DNA of 64,000 nt from Solirubrobacteraceae bacterium (GTDB lineage Bacteria > Actinomycetota > Thermoleophilia > Solirubrobacterales > Solirubrobacteraceae). The position numbers and the translations under genes are program-made. The notes beneath the pieces were generated by a model that searched no databases, was not told the origin of the DNA, and worked only from the letters and a program-made list of their open reading frames with translations. The DNA is taken from assembly GCA_017882445.1 (NCBI GenBank), contig JADGPK010000005.1, forward strand, positions 1 to 64,000, given 5' to 3'. Below, piece by piece: positions 10,495 through 16,928 of this stretch; position 1 is the first letter of the stretch; each line of letters begins with the position of its first letter.

Positions 10495-13251
10495 TCAGGC
10501 CGTCAGCGCCGACTCGATCGCGGCACGCGCGGCGTCGATCGCGGCGTCGAGCTTCTCGGGATCGCGTCCGCCGGCCTGGGCCATCGTGTCCCTTCCCCCT
10601 CCCCCACCGCCGACCATCTCCGCGGCGACCTTCACCACGGCGCCGGCCTTGACGCCCCGCTTCACCAGCGCGGGCGCGACACTCGCGACCAGGTGAACGC
10701 GGCCGTCGTCGGCCGTGCCCAGCAGGATCGCGGCGTCCTTCAGGCGGCCCTTGACGCGGTCGAGCACGTCGAGTAGCGCTTTCGCGTCCGGAACGTCGAC
10801 CGCCGCGGTGAGCACGCGTGCGCCGGCGATCTCCTCGGCGAGCCGGGCGAGGGAATCCACATCCACGGAGCCGGTGCCGCTCGCGGGGCCGGACCCCTCC
10901 TTCAGCGCCTTCTCGAGCCGCTTGCGCTCCTGCATGAGGGTGTGCACCGCCGAGGGCGCGTCCTCGGCGCGCGTGCGCAACTGCGCGCCGATCTCGCCGA
11001 GCAGACGGTCGTGCTCGCGCAGCAGATCCACCGCGACCGGACCGGTGACGGCCTCGATGCGCCTGACGTTGGCCGCGCTGGAGGTCTCGCTGAGAATACG
11101 AAAGGGCCCGATCTCGGCGGTCGAGCGTACGTGCGTCCCGCCGCACAGCTCGCGCGAGTACTCGCCGTCGCCGATCTGCACCATCCGCACAACCTCGCCG
11201 TACTTCTCGCCGAACAGCGCCATCGCACCCAGGCGCCTGGCCTCCTCCAGCGTGGTGGTGATCGGTCGCACTGGGTCGTTGCGGGCGATCCACTCGTTGA
11301 CGCGGTCCTCCACGTCGCGCAGCTCCTCGGCGCTCATCGCCTGCCCGTGGCTGAAGTCGAAGCGCAGCTTGTCCGGGCCCACGTAGGAGCCTGCCTGGCG
11401 CACGTGGCTTCCCACCAGCTCCCGCAGAGCCGCCTGCAGCAGATGGGTGGCGGTGTGGTTGCACTCGGTGGCGTGCCGTGCTTGCCGGTCGACTCTCGCC
11501 ACGACCGGCGCGCCCGTGCGCAGGGCGCCCTGCTCGACGACGACGGCCAGCGCCTGGTCGTCACCGAGCCGGAAGACATCCTCCACGCGTGCGCGACAGT
11601 CTCCGTCCTCGCATTCGATCGTGCCGACGTCGGCGACCTGGCCGCCGCCGGCGGCGTAGAACGGGGACTCGGCCAGCTTGAGGAGATAGCGCGTGCCGGC
11701 CGGGACGCTCCGTGCTTGCGAGTCCTCGCCACCCTGTGCTCCCGGGCCCTCCCCAGGTTCGCGTCCGTTCGCTGAGACGCCCTGGACCGCGCCGACCGTC
11801 GTGTGCTGCTCCTCGCTCTCATATCCGGTGAAGCGCGTCGCGACGCCGCTCCCGGCGGCGAATGAGCTCGCCGCGGCGCGCGCTTGGGCCACCTCGCTGG
11901 GGGTGCCGGCAGCACCCGTCCGTCCTCCCGCGCGACCGCGCGCGCGCTGCTGCTCCATCAGGGTGTCGAAGTCCCCCTCGATCGAGAGCCCCTCCTCGGC
12001 GAGCAGCTCGCTCGTCATCTCATAAGGGAAGCCGTAGGTGTCATGCAGGCGGAAGACCTCCTCGGCGGGCACGGTGGATCGCGCCTGCGAGCGTGCCTGC
12101 TCGATGTGCGTGCGCAGCGTGGCCATCCCCTGTGCGAGGGTGCGTCCGAAGCTCTCCTCCTCCGAGGACAGCCACATGTCCGTCGCCTCGGCGTGTTCGC
12201 TTAGCTCGGGGTACGTCGCGCCCATCAGCTCACGCACGCGCTCGCCATAGCGCGTCAGGAAGCCCGGCTCGAGCTCGAGGGCGCGCCCCTGCTGGATCGC
12301 TCGACGCATGACCCGGCGCAGCACATAGCCGCGGTCCTCGTTTGAGGGCACGACGCCGTCGGCGGTCAGGAATGTCATCGCGCGCGCGTGGTCGGCGAGG
12401 ATGCGCAAGGCGCGGTCGGTGGCAAAGTCCTCGCGGTAGCGCCTGCCGGAGAGCTCCTCGCCGAGCTCGATCAGGGGCTGGAACTGGTCGGTCTCGAACA
12501 CCGACTGCTTGCCCTGCAGGATCGCTGCCAGGCGGTTCAGGCCGAGGCCGGTGTCGATGTTGTTGGCGGGAAGCGGCTCGAGCGTCGAGCCCGCGCCCTG
12601 CGCGTCGGGCTGCTGGTCGTACTGCATGAAGACCAGGTTCCAGTACTCCAGGAAGCGCTCGTTCTCTCCGCCGGGGAGATCGCCGGGCGAGCCATGCTGC
12701 TCACCGCGATCGATGTAGAGCTCCGAGCACGGCCCGCACGGGCCCGCAGGTCCCGCCTGCCAGAAGTTCTCAGAGCGCGGGCATTGCACGATCCGCGTCC
12801 GCGGCACGCCGAGCTCCACCCAACGGTCGATCGCCTCCTCGTCGGGGCCGAGCCCGAGGCCCTCATCGCCCTCGAACACCGTCACCCAGATGTCGGCCTG
12901 ATCGAAGCCGAAGACGTCCTTCGACAGCTCCCATGCGAGCGCGATGGCCTCGTGCTTGAAGTAGTCCCCGAACGAGAAGTTGCCGAGCATCTCGAAGAAG
13001 GTCAGGTGACGCGTCGTGTTGCCGACGTTGTCGATGTCGACCGTGCGGAAGACCTTCTGACAGCTGGTGAGACGCCGGGCCGGCGGTGTCTCCTGGCCGA
13101 GGAAATAGGGCTTCAGCGGGTGCATCCCCGCGACCGTCAGGAGCGCTGAGTGGTCGTGCGCGGAGGGCACGAGAGACGCCGAGGGGATCCTGCGGTGTCC
13201 GCGTTCCTCGAAGAAGCTCAGGTACCGCTCGCGTATCTCGTCAGAGGTCAT
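10495..13251 (-). CDS. alaS: Alanine--tRNA ligase
   Basis: A 918-residue alanyl-tRNA synthetase. The class II catalytic core is at the N-terminus, the editing domain has HTATHLLQAAL and CGGTH zinc-binding motifs, and a C-terminal DHHA1 domain ends with a Gly-rich GGGGGGRDTMAQAGG stretch. It is somewhat longer than the usual 870-890 residues because of an Ala/Gly-rich insertion near 445-510 just before the editing domain. It lies between mnmA (31 bases upstream) and ruvX. Confidence 0.97.
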   Translation of the reverse strand: MTSDEIRERYLSFFEERGHRRIPSASLVPSAHDHSALLTVAGMHPLKPYFLGQETPPARRLTSCQKVFRTVDIDNVGNTTRHLTFFEMLGNFSFGDYFKHEAIALAWELSKDVFGFDQADIWVTVFEGDEGLGLGPDEEAIDRWVELGVPRTRIVQCPRSENFWQAGPAGPCGPCSELYIDRGEQHGSPGDLPGGENERFLEYWNLVFMQYDQQPDAQGAGSTLEPLPANNIDTGLGLNRLAAILQGKQSVFETDQFQPLIELGEELSGRRYREDFATDRALRILADHARAMTFLTADGVVPSNEDRGYVLRRVMRRAIQQGRALELEPGFLTRYGERVRELMGATYPELSEHAEATDMWLSSEEESFGRTLAQGMATLRTHIEQARSQARSTVPAEEVFRLHDTYGFPYEMTSELLAEEGLSIEGDFDTLMEQQRARGRAGGRTGAAGTPSEVAQARAAASSFAAGSGVATRFTGYESEEQHTTVGAVQGVSANGREPGEGPGAQGGEDSQARSVPAGTRYLLKLAESPFYAAGGGQVADVGTIECEDGDCRARVEDVFRLGDDQALAVVVEQGALRTGAPVVARVDRQARHATECNHTATHLLQAALRELVGSHVRQAGSYVGPDKLRFDFSHGQAMSAEELRDVEDRVNEWIARNDPVRPITTTLEEARRLGAMALFGEKYGEVVRMVQIGDGEYSRELCGGTHVRSTAEIGPFRILSETSSAANVRRIEAVTGPVAVDLLREHDRLLGEIGAQLRTRAEDAPSAVHTLMQERKRLEKALKEGSGPASGTGSVDVDSLARLAEEIAGARVLTAAVDVPDAKALLDVLDRVKGRLKDAAILLGTADDGRVHLVASVAPALVKRGVKAGAVVKVAAEMVGGGGGGRDTMAQAGGRDPEKLDAAIDAARAAIESALTA

Positions 13252-13282: not shown

Positions 13283-14743
13283 CTACGCGGCGATGGTGCC
13301 GTAGCCGACGACGAGATCGCCCGTGTACAGGCAGGCGATCTGCCCTGGGGCGGTGCGCTCGGCGGCCTCATCCAGCTCGACCGCCACGGCTGCGTGGCGT
13401 CCGGCTTGGAGATCGCCGGCCAGCCGGCAGGCGAAGAGGCGGCCGTGCGCGCGCACGCGCACGCTGTCCACGCAGCTTCCCTGACGATGGAGCGTCACCC
13501 CGCTCACGGCCAGATCACGCGCGAGCAGCTCACGGCGAGGGCCGACCGTGACGGTGTTCGCGCGTGCATCGGTGGCGAGCACGTACAGCGGCTCGGAAGC
13601 GGAGATCCCGAGGCCGTGGCGCTGCCCGACCGTGTAGACGTGGGCACCGGAATGCTCTCCGAGCGTGCCTCCGTCGAGGTCGACGATCCGACCGGGACGC
13701 CGACCCAGGCCCCCGTGGCGCTCCAGGAAGGCGCTGTGACGCGTGCCCGCGAGGAAGCACAGATCCTGGGAGTCGCGTCTGCGAGCGACTCCCAGCCCGG
13801 CACGCTCGGCCAGTTCGCGCACCTGCGGCTTGTGCAGCGCCCCGAGCGGAAAGCGCAGGCGCGCGAGCGACGCGGGCGCAAGCGCGGACAGCACGTAGCT
13901 CTGGTCCTTGGCGGCGTCGGTCGCCGTTCTCAACAGCGGGCCGGGCGGGCCTTCCGCCACACGCGCGTAGTGGCCCGTCGCAAGCGTCTCTGACCCCAGC
14001 CGGTCGGCCAGCTCGAGCATGGCGTCGAGACGGACCTGACCGTTGCAGCGAACGCACGGGTTCGGCGTGAGACCGGCGGCGTGGTCTGCGACCCAGCCGT
14101 CAACGACGCCCGCCCGGAACTCGGCGCGCAGGTCGATCGAGAGGTGGGGCATGTCCAGGGAGTGCGCCAGTTCGCGCGCGCCGCGAACCGCCTGCGCCGA
14201 GCAGCAGCTGAGATCGCCGTCGTTCTCAGGGTCCGACCACAGTTCGAGTGTCACGCCCACGGCCTGCGCGCCCGCCTCGGACACGAGCAGCGCCGCAACC
14301 GCGCTGTCCACCCCGCCGCTCATCGCGACGAGCGTCCGGCCGGCGCTCCTGCTCAGCGCGGCGCACGCTCGAGCGGCGCCGCCGAGCGCGCGATGCAGCG
14401 CGTCGGCCGCGAGCTCGGCCGCGTGGTGCTTGGCCGCGCTGAGACCTCCCAGCTCATCGGCGATCTCCTGCGCGCCGATCCGCGCGGCTCCGAGCAGGGG
14501 CGCGCCGCGCAGCAGCCTCACCGCGGCGCTGCCGGCCGCCACGGTGGCCCCGCAACCGCTTGCGTCGAAGCCCGCGTCGCGGATACTCCCATCGGCGCTG
14601 TCGGTGTCGAGCGCGATCGAGACGCGGATCACATCGCCGCACGCCGCGCCGCCCGCCGCGCCGGTGAACGCGTCATCCGGGGAATGACCGCGCCCGAGCG
14701 GGCGTTCGAGATGATTGATCAGCTCCTCTGCGCTCGTGCTCAC
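13283..14743 (-). CDS. mnmA: NifU/IscU-like domain fused to tRNA 2-thiouridine synthase MnmA
   Basis: A 486-residue fusion starting at GTG 14743. Residues 1-120 resemble the NifU/IscU iron-sulfur scaffold: C35-G-D37, GCG with C64, and H106/H107, but the third ligand cysteine expected after the His is Ala108. Residues 135-486 are MnmA, which thiolates U34 of tRNA-Lys/Glu/Gln: PP-loop SGGVDS (142-147), NPCVRCN and SQDLCF supply the two catalytic cysteines. A scaffold attached to the thiolase suggests local sulfur or cluster delivery, but loss of the third Cys means it may not hold a standard [2Fe-2S] cluster. No cysteine desulfurase gene is adjacent. It lies directly upstream of alaS. Confidence 0.9.
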   Translation of the reverse strand: MSTSAEELINHLERPLGRGHSPDDAFTGAAGGAACGDVIRVSIALDTDSADGSIRDAGFDASGCGATVAAGSAAVRLLRGAPLLGAARIGAQEIADELGGLSAAKHHAAELAADALHRALGGAARACAALSRSAGRTLVAMSGGVDSAVAALLVSEAGAQAVGVTLELWSDPENDGDLSCCSAQAVRGARELAHSLDMPHLSIDLRAEFRAGVVDGWVADHAAGLTPNPCVRCNGQVRLDAMLELADRLGSETLATGHYARVAEGPPGPLLRTATDAAKDQSYVLSALAPASLARLRFPLGALHKPQVRELAERAGLGVARRRDSQDLCFLAGTRHSAFLERHGGLGRRPGRIVDLDGGTLGEHSGAHVYTVGQRHGLGISASEPLYVLATDARANTVTVGPRRELLARDLAVSGVTLHRQGSCVDSVRVRAHGRLFACRLAGDLQAGRHAAVAVELDEAAERTAPGQIACLYTGDLVVGYGTIAA

Positions 14744-14758
14744 TGAGCGAGTGTACGG

Positions 14759-15610
14759 CTAGGAGTGTCGCGCTTCGTCTATCGCCTGCTCGATGGCGAA
14801 GGCATCCTGCAGGCCGGTCAGCGTCGTGGTCTGACCGCGCTTGTTGATGATCAGGATCGTCGGAGTCCCGTAGACCTGAACGCCACGGGTGATCGAGCCG
14901 AAGGACGCGACCTGGTTCGCGCGCGCTTCGAAGGCGGCGAACTTCTTCTGCAATTCAAGGCCCGACCGCTCGAGCGCGAGCCGCACCTTCGCCACGCCGG
15001 CGAGCGGAGCGATCAGATGGTGAGCCGCCTCCAGGAAGCGCAGTTCGTCGCGAACAGCGACGTCGTCGGTTCCCTTCGGGCTCCAGAACAGGATCACCGC
15101 GATCTTGCCTTCATTCAGCGCACGTTCCACGAGCGCCTGTCTGGCCGGCGTGCGACCCACTCCGGGCTGCGCTTTGATCGGGTGCTGCTTGACGGTGGCA
15201 CGTGTCGTGGCCGGTGCCTTCGACCCGACGGCTGGAGCGTGGGTGGTCGAGCTCGTCGGCGTCGCCGTGCGCGAAGGAGCGCCGGAAGCGGATGTCGTGC
15301 CACCGGTGGACGCTTGAGCGGAGCGTTCTTCCAGCTGCTTGGCGTTCTGCTGGGAGGTCGCGACGGCTCCGTGGGCTTTGGCGATCGCGCGAGTCAGCCC
15401 TCCCACGCCGGGCGCGGACCCGTGGTAGACGTTGCTCGGCGAGCCGCTCGCCTTGGCCGACGGCGCAGCGGCGGGTTCGGTCGCGGGCGTAGGGGCGACA
15501 GCCGAGCTGCTCGTGCTCGCCGGATGCCCTTGCAGCGCAAAGAACCACACGGCGACGAGCAGACCGACCGCGATGAGGGCGATCTGGAAGGGGCGAGAGA
15601 GCTGCGTCAT
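14759..15610 (-). CDS. Membrane-anchored thioredoxin-fold protein lacking cysteines
   Basis: A 283-residue protein from ATG 15610 (an in-frame ATG at 15628 is also possible). One membrane segment at about 8-26 is followed by a long Ala/Ser/Thr/Pro-rich linker and a C-terminal thioredoxin-like domain (about 165-283). Where a WCxxC motif is expected the sequence reads FWSPKGTDD, and VYGTPTILI keeps the cis-Pro loop. No cysteine occurs in the chosen reading frame, so it cannot be a disulfide oxidoreductase; a binding or scaffolding role outside the membrane is inferred. It lies between hisS and mnmA on the same strand. Confidence 0.7.
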   Translation of the reverse strand: MTQLSRPFQIALIAVGLLVAVWFFALQGHPASTSSSAVAPTPATEPAAAPSAKASGSPSNVYHGSAPGVGGLTRAIAKAHGAVATSQQNAKQLEERSAQASTGGTTSASGAPSRTATPTSSTTHAPAVGSKAPATTRATVKQHPIKAQPGVGRTPARQALVERALNEGKIAVILFWSPKGTDDVAVRDELRFLEAAHHLIAPLAGVAKVRLALERSGLELQKKFAAFEARANQVASFGSITRGVQVYGTPTILIINKRGQTTTLTGLQDAFAIEQAIDEARHS

Positions 15611-15668
15611 CTCAACCAATTTCGGCATCCTGGCGGAAAAGTTGAACGACGCATCACGCCGTGGACGG

Positions 15669-16928
15669 TCAGACCGCGCGATGGGCGCGCAGCACGGCAT
15701 GCACGACGGCGTCGCTGGCCATCGGCTCCTGGCGGCCTCCCTGCGTGTCCTTGAGCGTCGTCTGATTCCGCCCGACGATCGCCACGAAGCGGACGCCGAG
15801 CGCCGCGGCGTGACCGAGCTGGCCTTTCAGCGAGCGCCCGCCGAGGTCCATCCGGGCGGAGATCCCAGCTGAGCGCGCCTCGTTCAGCAGAGCGAAGGCG
15901 ACCGCGCGGACGTCGGCGTGCGGATCCTCCAGCGCAACAAACAGCTCAACCGGAGCCGGGGCCGCCGGCGGTGCATCGCCGGCCAGCATTATCCGCTCGA
16001 TCCCAGCCGCCCAACCCATCCCGGGCGTGGGCGGGCCGCCCATCTGCTCGACGAGGCGGTCGTAGCGTCCCCCGCCTCCGACGCCGCTCTGCGCGCCGAG
16101 AGCGTCGGAGGTGAACTCGAACACGGTGCGCGTGTAGTAGTCGAGCCCGCGCACGAGCGTGGAGTCGACCTCGTAGGGGATGTTGACCACATCCAACAGG
16201 CTGCGCACCTGTGCGAAGTGCTCGGCGTCCTCGCTGTTGAGGTGCTCGAGCAGACGCGGCGCGCCCTGCATCACCCTCTGAGTGCCGGGGTGCTCAGAGT
16301 CGAAGGCCCGTAGCGGATTCAGATCGATGCGAGCCCTCACCTCCTCCGCGAGGCTGTCCTCGTGCGCACGAAGATACGTCTGCAGACGCTCGCGGTATTC
16401 GCTTCTGCTCTCGGGGCTTCCGAGGCTCGAGAGGCGCAGCCGGACGTCGGAGACCCGCATCTCGGCGAGCAGCCTGGAGAGCAGCACGATCGACTCAGCG
16501 TCGACCGCGGGGTCCTCGGAGCCGAGCGCCTCGGCCCCGACCTGCCAGAACTGTCGGTAGCGTCCGGCCTGCGCGCGCTCGTGTCGGAAGAAGCTCGACA
16601 GGTACCACAGCTTCACCGGCCGCCGGAGCTTGTGCATACCGTGCTCGACATAGGCCCGGCAGACCGGAGCGGTCCCCTCCGGGCGCAGCGTGAGCGAGCG
16701 TCCGCCGGCGTCCTGGAACGTGAACATCTCCTTGCGCACGATGTCGGTCGACTCGCCGACGCCACGGGCGAACAGCTCGGTCGCCTCGAACACCGGCGTC
16801 TCGATCCGCTCGTACCCGGCGCCCTCCAGGATCGAGCGCGCACGGGCCTCGAGCATCGCGCGGGCGGACGCCTGCTCGCCGAGCACGTCAAACGTGCCAC
16901 GCGGCGCTTTGATCTTGGATCCGCTCAA
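15669..16928 (-). CDS. hisS: Histidine--tRNA ligase
   Basis: A 419-residue class II histidyl-tRNA synthetase. It starts KIKAPRGTFDVL after a TTG codon at 16928; that TTG overlaps the TGA of the MBL-hydrolase gene as TTGA, which decides the start. Motif 2 (SSFFRHERAQAGRYRQFWQ), the histidine-A signature LVRGLDYYTRT and motif 3 (MGWAAGIERI) are intact, followed by the anticodon-binding domain. Further in-frame sequence upstream is antisense-free overlap with the hydrolase gene in another frame and is not part of hisS. Confidence 0.95.
   Translation of the reverse strand: MSGSKIKAPRGTFDVLGEQASARAMLEARARSILEGAGYERIETPVFEATELFARGVGESTDIVRKEMFTFQDAGGRSLTLRPEGTAPVCRAYVEHGMHKLRRPVKLWYLSSFFRHERAQAGRYRQFWQVGAEALGSEDPAVDAESIVLLSRLLAEMRVSDVRLRLSSLGSPESRSEYRERLQTYLRAHEDSLAEEVRARIDLNPLRAFDSEHPGTQRVMQGAPRLLEHLNSEDAEHFAQVRSLLDVVNIPYEVDSTLVRGLDYYTRTVFEFTSDALGAQSGVGGGGRYDRLVEQMGGPPTPGMGWAAGIERIMLAGDAPPAAPAPVELFVALEDPHADVRAVAFALLNEARSAGISARMDLGGRSLKGQLGHAAALGVRFVAIVGRNQTTLKDTQGGRQEPMASDAVVHAVLRAHRAV

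What the first reader, a model, noticed from the sequence alone, without database searches (positions are those of the whole stretch)
13283..14743. NifU/IscU-like scaffold fused to MnmA with the third cluster ligand lost
C35, D37, C64 and the His pair at 106-107 follow IscU numbering closely, but the cysteine after His is Ala108. C127 in the linker to MnmA is the only other nearby Cys. The fusion suggests direct transfer of sulfur or a cluster to the thiolation site, yet the site is non-canonical. It may mark an MnmA that uses an iron-sulfur cluster or a distinct sulfur relay.
Basis: partly seen in the sequence, partly recalled or inferred. Interest (0 to 1): 0.5.

Follow-up and report, generated by a model that had tools for sequence, protein, structure and literature searches.

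The report
IscU-derived domain fused to tRNA thiolase
A tRNA-sulfurating enzyme in an actinobacterium carries a fused iron-sulfur-scaffold domain that keeps four metal-binding residues but has lost the cysteine that normally receives sulfur, a change shared by its relatives and repeated in several lineages, which suggests the domain is now a dedicated helper of this one enzyme rather than a general scaffold.

Summary
On the minus strand, 14743-13283 encodes one 486-aa protein: a NifU/IscU domain (6-120) fused to MnmA (137-484). E. coli IscU C37/D39/C63/H105 are kept as C35/D37/C64/H107; C106 is Ala108. In 80 of 80 intact homologues from the window's order and family f5 the four residues are invariant and position 108 is Ala, Gly or Val, never Cys. 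C127 is private to this protein (1 of 50 in the order) and lies at the far end of a helix in a confident model, so it does not replace the lost ligand. More distant relatives keep the third Cys but lose the His, or lose most ligands, or shrink the domain to a remnant. A sister clade has an IscS-NifU-MnmA locus with the same missing Cys. The MnmA part is the known C-type (CC-CxxC-C), so a [4Fe-4S] MnmA is expected without invoking the fusion. In ISCU2 the four kept residues bind Fe(II) in the free scaffold and the lost one is the persulfide acceptor (published). Best reading: an IscU turned into a metal-binding desulfurase-docking domain dedicated to MnmA, no longer a cluster scaffold. Function untested.

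The parts
13283..14743 (-). Complete ORF, NifU/IscU-like domain fused to MnmA, 486 aa, GTG start, stop included
   Evidence: AlphaFold2 model pLDDT 95.7, pTM 0.93
14384..14728 (-). NifU_N / IscU-like domain, residues 6-120
   Evidence: Pfam PF01592 E 1.3e-20; IscU structures Z 18-21
14639..14641 (-). Cys35, equivalent of E. coli IscU Cys37
   Evidence: 80 of 80 intact homologues in order + f5
14633..14635 (-). Asp37, equivalent of IscU Asp39
   Evidence: 80 of 80
14552..14554 (-). Cys64, equivalent of IscU Cys63
   Evidence: 80 of 80
14423..14425 (-). His107, equivalent of IscU His105
   Evidence: 80 of 80
14420..14422 (-). Ala108 at the place of IscU Cys106 (the persulfide acceptor in ISCU2)
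   Evidence: 0 of 80 Cys; Ala in 46 of 50 of the order, Gly in 29 of 30 of f5; acceptor role from PMC11021402 passages
14363..14365 (-). Cys127, not conserved, end of helix 103-127
   Evidence: 1 of 50 in the order, 0 of 30 in f5; model
13292..14335 (-). MnmA (tRNA 2-thiouridine(34) synthase) domains, residues 137-484
   Evidence: NF001138 336 bits, cut-off 284; 2hma Z 36.3
14201..14206 (-). Cys180-Cys181, the CC of C-type MnmA
14045..14056 (-). Cys230-x-x-Cys233 (TPNPCVRCN), the CxxC of C-type MnmA
13757..13759 (-). Cys329 (DLCFL), third catalytic Cys of C-type MnmA
10495..13251 (-). alaS, directly downstream, same strand (neighbour, gene-order relic)
   Evidence: PF01411 E 2.4e-160

Best explanation
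An IscU-type scaffold, ancestrally encoded between iscS and mnmA, was fused to a C-type ([4Fe-4S] class) MnmA and became its private partner. It kept the four-ligand metal site that free IscU uses to bind Fe(II) or Zn(II) (Cys, Asp, Cys, His) and lost the Cys that accepts persulfide and starts cluster assembly. The domain most likely docks the cysteine desulfurase (SufS in this genome, IscS in the sister clade) next to MnmA; its metal site holds the docking surface and may draw the donor's sulfur toward MnmA, so that sulfur goes to MnmA instead of into a scaffold-bound cluster. Shown by sequence: fusion, kept and lost residues, their conservation, operon ancestry, C-type MnmA. Inferred: metal binding, desulfurase docking, direction of sulfur flow.
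For: C35/D37/C64/H107 are invariant in 80 of 80 intact rows although the domain's mean top-residue frequency is only 0.65-0.71: a used site, not a ruin. The same four without the third Cys occur in 12 of 12 rows of a sister clade, each with an IscS-type gene next door. Passages of PMC11021402: free human ISCU2 binds Fe(II) by Cys69, Asp71, Cys95, His137 (the kept set) and Cys138 (the lost one) is the persulfide acceptor. Passages of PMC4243993: calculated Zn site of E. coli IscU by C37, D39, C63, H105 without C106. The order iscS-nifU-mnmA is seen in f6, f10, f11, f22, f28 and in Negativicutes, Deltaproteobacteria and Clostridiales loci. The window genome has a separate sufC-sufD-sufS-sufU-sufB set for general Fe-S assembly, and its SufU keeps C-D-C-C.
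Against: No metal, cluster or desulfurase binding was measured. In f7, f9 and f15 the site is wholly or partly gone while MnmA stays, so the site is not needed for MnmA catalysis everywhere. In this genome no IscS-type desulfurase was found, and whether an IscU-like domain can dock SufS is unknown. A cluster could still be held by two Cys, Asp and His.
Confidence: 0.42

Rival explanations
1. Sulfur carrier. The domain works like SufU: Cys35 (SufU Cys40/41) takes persulfide from SufS and passes it inside the same chain to MnmA; the metal site with His107 stands in for the third Cys of SufU.
For: SufS is the only cysteine desulfurase recognised in the window genome and aligns best to SufU-partnered B. 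subtilis SufS, sharing its HPHD motif. Passages of PMC10216065: Cys40 of M. tuberculosis SufU is the acceptor, and that SufU has only Cys31, Cys40 and Cys67, with Cys31 as a zinc ligand. C35 is invariant.
Against: By fold the domain is nearer IscU (Z 18-21) than SufU (Z 14-15). The genome has its own SufU. In the sister clade f22 the neighbour is an IscS-type desulfurase. There is no Cys at the place of Cys31 (by counting nine residues back from C35).
Confidence: 0.25
2. Cluster donor. The domain assembles a non-canonical cluster with 2 Cys, Asp and His ligands and inserts it into the CxxC-C site of the fused MnmA.
For: The MnmA part has the CC-CxxC-C motif of the Fe-S class and needs a [4Fe-4S] cluster if the class assignment holds. 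Fusion suggests a donor-acceptor pair.
Against: Persulfide acceptance by the lost Cys is the step that starts cluster assembly on ISCU2 (PMC11021402 passages). C-type MnmAs without a fused NifU domain abound, and f7 and f9 keep C-type MnmA with a ruined domain, so the domain is not needed to load MnmA. The SUF set is present.
Confidence: 0.16
3. Structural leftover. The domain only stabilises MnmA or helps tRNA binding; the site residues are on the way to being lost.
For: f7 has a remnant of about 75 aa (hhalign 97.3%, E 1.7e-11, best of 30 column-shuffled controls 6.6%); f9 and f15 have lost most ligands.
Against: In the window's order, f5 and f22 the four residues do not vary at all (92 of 92 intact rows).
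Confidence: 0.15

Closest known systems
IscU / NifU N-terminal domain (PF01592, TIGR01999)
   Same: Fold (Z 18-21), C-D-C-H site, place in an iscS-nifU-mnmA gene order in relatives
   Different: Third Cys lost; below the IscU equivalog cut-off (58 bits against 192); fused to MnmA; no scaffold role shown
SufU (zinc-dependent sulfur acceptor, TIGR01994)
   Same: C-D-C metal site; M. tuberculosis SufU likewise does without the third Cys (PMC10216065 passages)
   Different: Sequence and fold nearer IscU; His107 in place of the compensating Cys31; separate SufU present in the genome
C-type MnmA (CC-CxxC-C; Shigi et al. 2020, known here through reviews)
   Same: All motif cysteines present; equivalog score above cut-off
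   Different: Carries an N-terminal IscU-like domain

Membership tests
IscU/NifU cluster scaffold | NifU_N sequence and fold | tested here: met
IscU/NifU cluster scaffold | three conserved Cys (E. coli C37, C63, C106) | tested here: not met
   A108 at the C106 place; 0 of 80 Cys in close relatives
IscU/NifU cluster scaffold | Asp39 and His105 equivalents | tested here: met
   D37, H107, 80 of 80
IscU/NifU cluster scaffold | assembles and transfers an Fe-S cluster | not testable with these tools
   needs biochemistry
C-type MnmA | CC, CxxC and C motif | tested here: met
   C180-C181, C230/C233, C329
C-type MnmA | MnmA equivalog score | tested here: met
   NF001138 336 bits, cut-off 284
C-type MnmA | binds a [4Fe-4S] cluster and is oxygen sensitive | not testable with these tools
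   shown for T. thermophilus MnmA according to PMC8584467 (passages)
SufU | SufU family model score | tested here: not met
   TIGR01994 27.8 bits against cut-off 92.5; note that the genome's own SufU scores 89.6, also just under
SufU | persulfide on the first Cys from SufS | not testable with these tools
   needs biochemistry

The most novel reading that the evidence does not exclude
An IscU has been turned from a scaffold into a metal-loaded persulfide steerer: it still binds Fe(II) like free ISCU2 but cannot take the sulfur, so the desulfurase's persulfide is handed across the docking site straight to MnmA. Once IscU is dedicated to MnmA its sulfur-acceptor Cys becomes useless or harmful and is lost, seven times on the tree if never regained.
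Probability: 0.22. Interest if true: 0.68.

Novelty: new variant of a known kind. Interest (0 to 1): 0.5.

Why it matters
How sulfur reaches MnmA, and whether MnmA uses a cluster or a persulfide, is openly disputed (PMC11784392, passages). Here nature has run a deletion series: the same MnmA with a full IscU partner, with the sulfur-acceptor Cys removed, with nearly all ligands removed, and with the domain cut to a remnant. Comparing these natural variants would separate docking, metal binding, sulfur acceptance and cluster transfer.

Tried and rejected
C127 as a replacement ligand: rejected.

Loss of IscS as the cause of the lost Cys: first looked good. At a cut-off of E < 1e-100, chosen after seeing the scores, IscS-type hits were in 1 of 53 genomes of the order, 3 of 42 of f7 and 0 of 42 of f5, against 17 of 18 in f8, 17 of 19 in f9, 5 of 8 in f10, 2 of 2 in f11 and 15 of 15 in f6; 23 of 25 genomes with Cys108 have one, against 22 of 132 without. 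But the independent-pairs test had too few pairs (median p 0.5), f9 has IscS and no Cys108, and f22 has an IscS-type gene next to nifU in 12 of 12 loci and no Cys108, so I dropped it as an explanation. In f5 a divergent NifS-like gene scores up to 1.4e-99, so 'absent' there depends on the cut-off.

A single Cys loss shared by f5 and the order is not rejected (p-AU 0.21). A switch of MnmA from CxxC to DxxC in lineages with a ruined domain: not found; of the loci tabulated only the E. coli control is DxxC. Coordinates of the model were not available, so no distance between the NifU site and the MnmA site is given; the helix argument on C127 rests on the secondary structure. Literature: no paper on a NifU-MnmA fusion was seen in four searches of a library limited to openly licensed PMC papers; domain databases on the web were not consulted.

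Rows dropped before counts: L173, L176, L170, L216 (cut by contig ends), L205 (frame broken upstream of MnmA); L008 (frame broken) and L020 (f7-like) are in the named set of 12, which is not part of the 80. Of 193 genomes of the class with a match, 165 had their locus read; the rest were not listed or not fetched. The trees use 58 and 67 chosen rows.

Full report
What is there. The minus strand 14743-13283 encodes one open frame of 486 aa with a GTG start 15 bases after the stop of the upstream gene. Pfam and NCBIfam read it as NifU_N (6-120, E 1.3e-20) plus MnmA (137-484, equivalog NF001138 336 bits, cut-off 284). AlphaFold2 gives pLDDT 95.7 and pTM 0.93 (37-row alignment); the model's N-domain matches IscU chains at Z 18-21 (4eb5_C Z 20.9, rmsd 2.1, 133 aligned) and the rest matches MnmA (2hma Z 36.3, rmsd 2.0, 341 aligned). 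alaS lies 31 bases downstream.

Ligands. Aligned to E. coli IscU from the K-12 record, C37, D39, C63, H105 and C106 face C35, D37, C64, H107 and A108. H106 of the 'His pair' is not conserved.

Relatives in the class. A search of 199 genomes of the class found P0001-like proteins in 193; one named close relative is called Solirubrobacterales (L003), which NCBI places in Thermoleophilia. I read 165 of these loci. In the window's order (families f1-f4; 50 intact of 53 rows) and in f5 (30 intact of 32) the four residues C35, D37, C64, H107 are invariant, and position 108 is Ala, Gly or Val with no Cys. C127 occurs in 1 of 50 and 0 of 30. In f5 a Cys at position 75 is present in 30 of 30 rows; its role is unknown.

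Other families of the class differ. f6: nifU and mnmA are separate genes and the 12 NifU rows read (of 15 genomes) have the full C-D-C-H-C. f10 and f11: 7 of 7 keep C-D-C and Cys108 but have no His. f8: 6 of 11 keep Cys108, Asp37 is kept in 6 of 11, none has the His. f9: Cys35 in 15 of 15, but no Asp37, Cys64 or Cys108. f7: the domain is cut to about 75 aa without the site (32 rows); the remnant is nonetheless homologous to the NifU domain (hhalign probability 97.3%, E 1.7e-11; 30 column-shuffled controls reached at most 6.6%).

Relatives outside the class. Of 149 genomes of the phylum searched, 20 loci were fetched. Family f22, sister to the class on the MnmA tree (f22 plus class 100/99, class alone 99/91), has nifU fused to mnmA in 9 of 12 loci and separate but adjacent in 3, with an IscS-type gene beside them in 12 of 12; all 12 NifU domains have C-D-C-H and Ala (10) or Gly (2) at 108. 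f15 has a fusion that branches elsewhere on the tree and lacks Asp37 and Cys108 in 5 of 5. f28 has separate genes with the full ligand set (2 of 2). If Cys108 was never regained, the 67-row tree needs seven losses; plain parsimony gives five changes. So loss of the sulfur-acceptor Cys in MnmA-attached NifU domains is recurrent, though the exact number is not settled.

Gene order. iscS-nifU-mnmA stands in loci of Negativicutes, Deltaproteobacteria and Clostridiales and in f6, f10, f11, f22 and f28, which is the likely source of the fusion. The window genome has no IscS-type hit beyond SufS (best 2.5e-43 with the IscS profile; SufS confirmed by TIGR01979), and it has a sufC-sufD-sufS-sufU-sufB set. 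The genome is 94.9% complete, so absence is likely, not certain.

MnmA type. In one search all 70 class loci have the CC, CxxC and C motifs, the C-type that reviews say binds a [4Fe-4S] cluster in T. thermophilus (PMC11784392 and PMC8584467, passages). This, not the fusion, is the reason to expect an Fe-S MnmA here. f7 and f9, with a ruined NifU domain, keep the same motif, so the domain is not essential for loading MnmA. f6, f15 and f22 were not tabulated for this motif.

Mechanism. Passages of PMC11021402 say that free human ISCU2 binds Fe(II) tetrahedrally by Cys69, Asp71, Cys95 and His137, and that Cys138 takes the persulfide directly, with none seen on other Cys in the C138S variant; passages of PMC4243993 say calculations on E. 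coli IscU allow a Zn site of C37, D39, C63, H105 without C106. The kept and lost residues here split along that line. I therefore read the domain as a metal-binding desulfurase-docking module dedicated to MnmA. The main rival is a SufU-like carrier through C35. None of this is shown by experiment.

Literature. Four searches listed no paper on a NifU-MnmA fusion; the library is limited to openly licensed PMC papers. All cited papers were seen as passages only.

Noticed in passing
L281:1009-4650 (G048, family f9): One open frame of 1214 aa joins a molybdopterin oxidoreductase (residues 62-761) to a NifS-type cysteine desulfurase (834-1203); eight f9 genomes show an IscS hit inside a frame of 1152-1312 aa. 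The domains were checked in this one only.
   Followed up: partly
window 14759-15700, minus strand: 313-aa ORF just upstream of the fusion, with no Pfam hit and no PDB sequence hit; its C-terminal part looks thioredoxin-like by eye.
   Followed up: partly
family f5, position 75 of the NifU domain (P0001 numbering): A Cys is invariant in 30 of 30 f5 rows (8 of 50 in the window's order), on the helix after Cys64; it could be an alternative ligand or thiol.
   Followed up: no
L315 (G000:C11:52000-66000): SUF gene set sufC-sufD-sufS-sufU-sufB in the window genome, with SufS as the only cysteine desulfurase recognised.
   Followed up: yes
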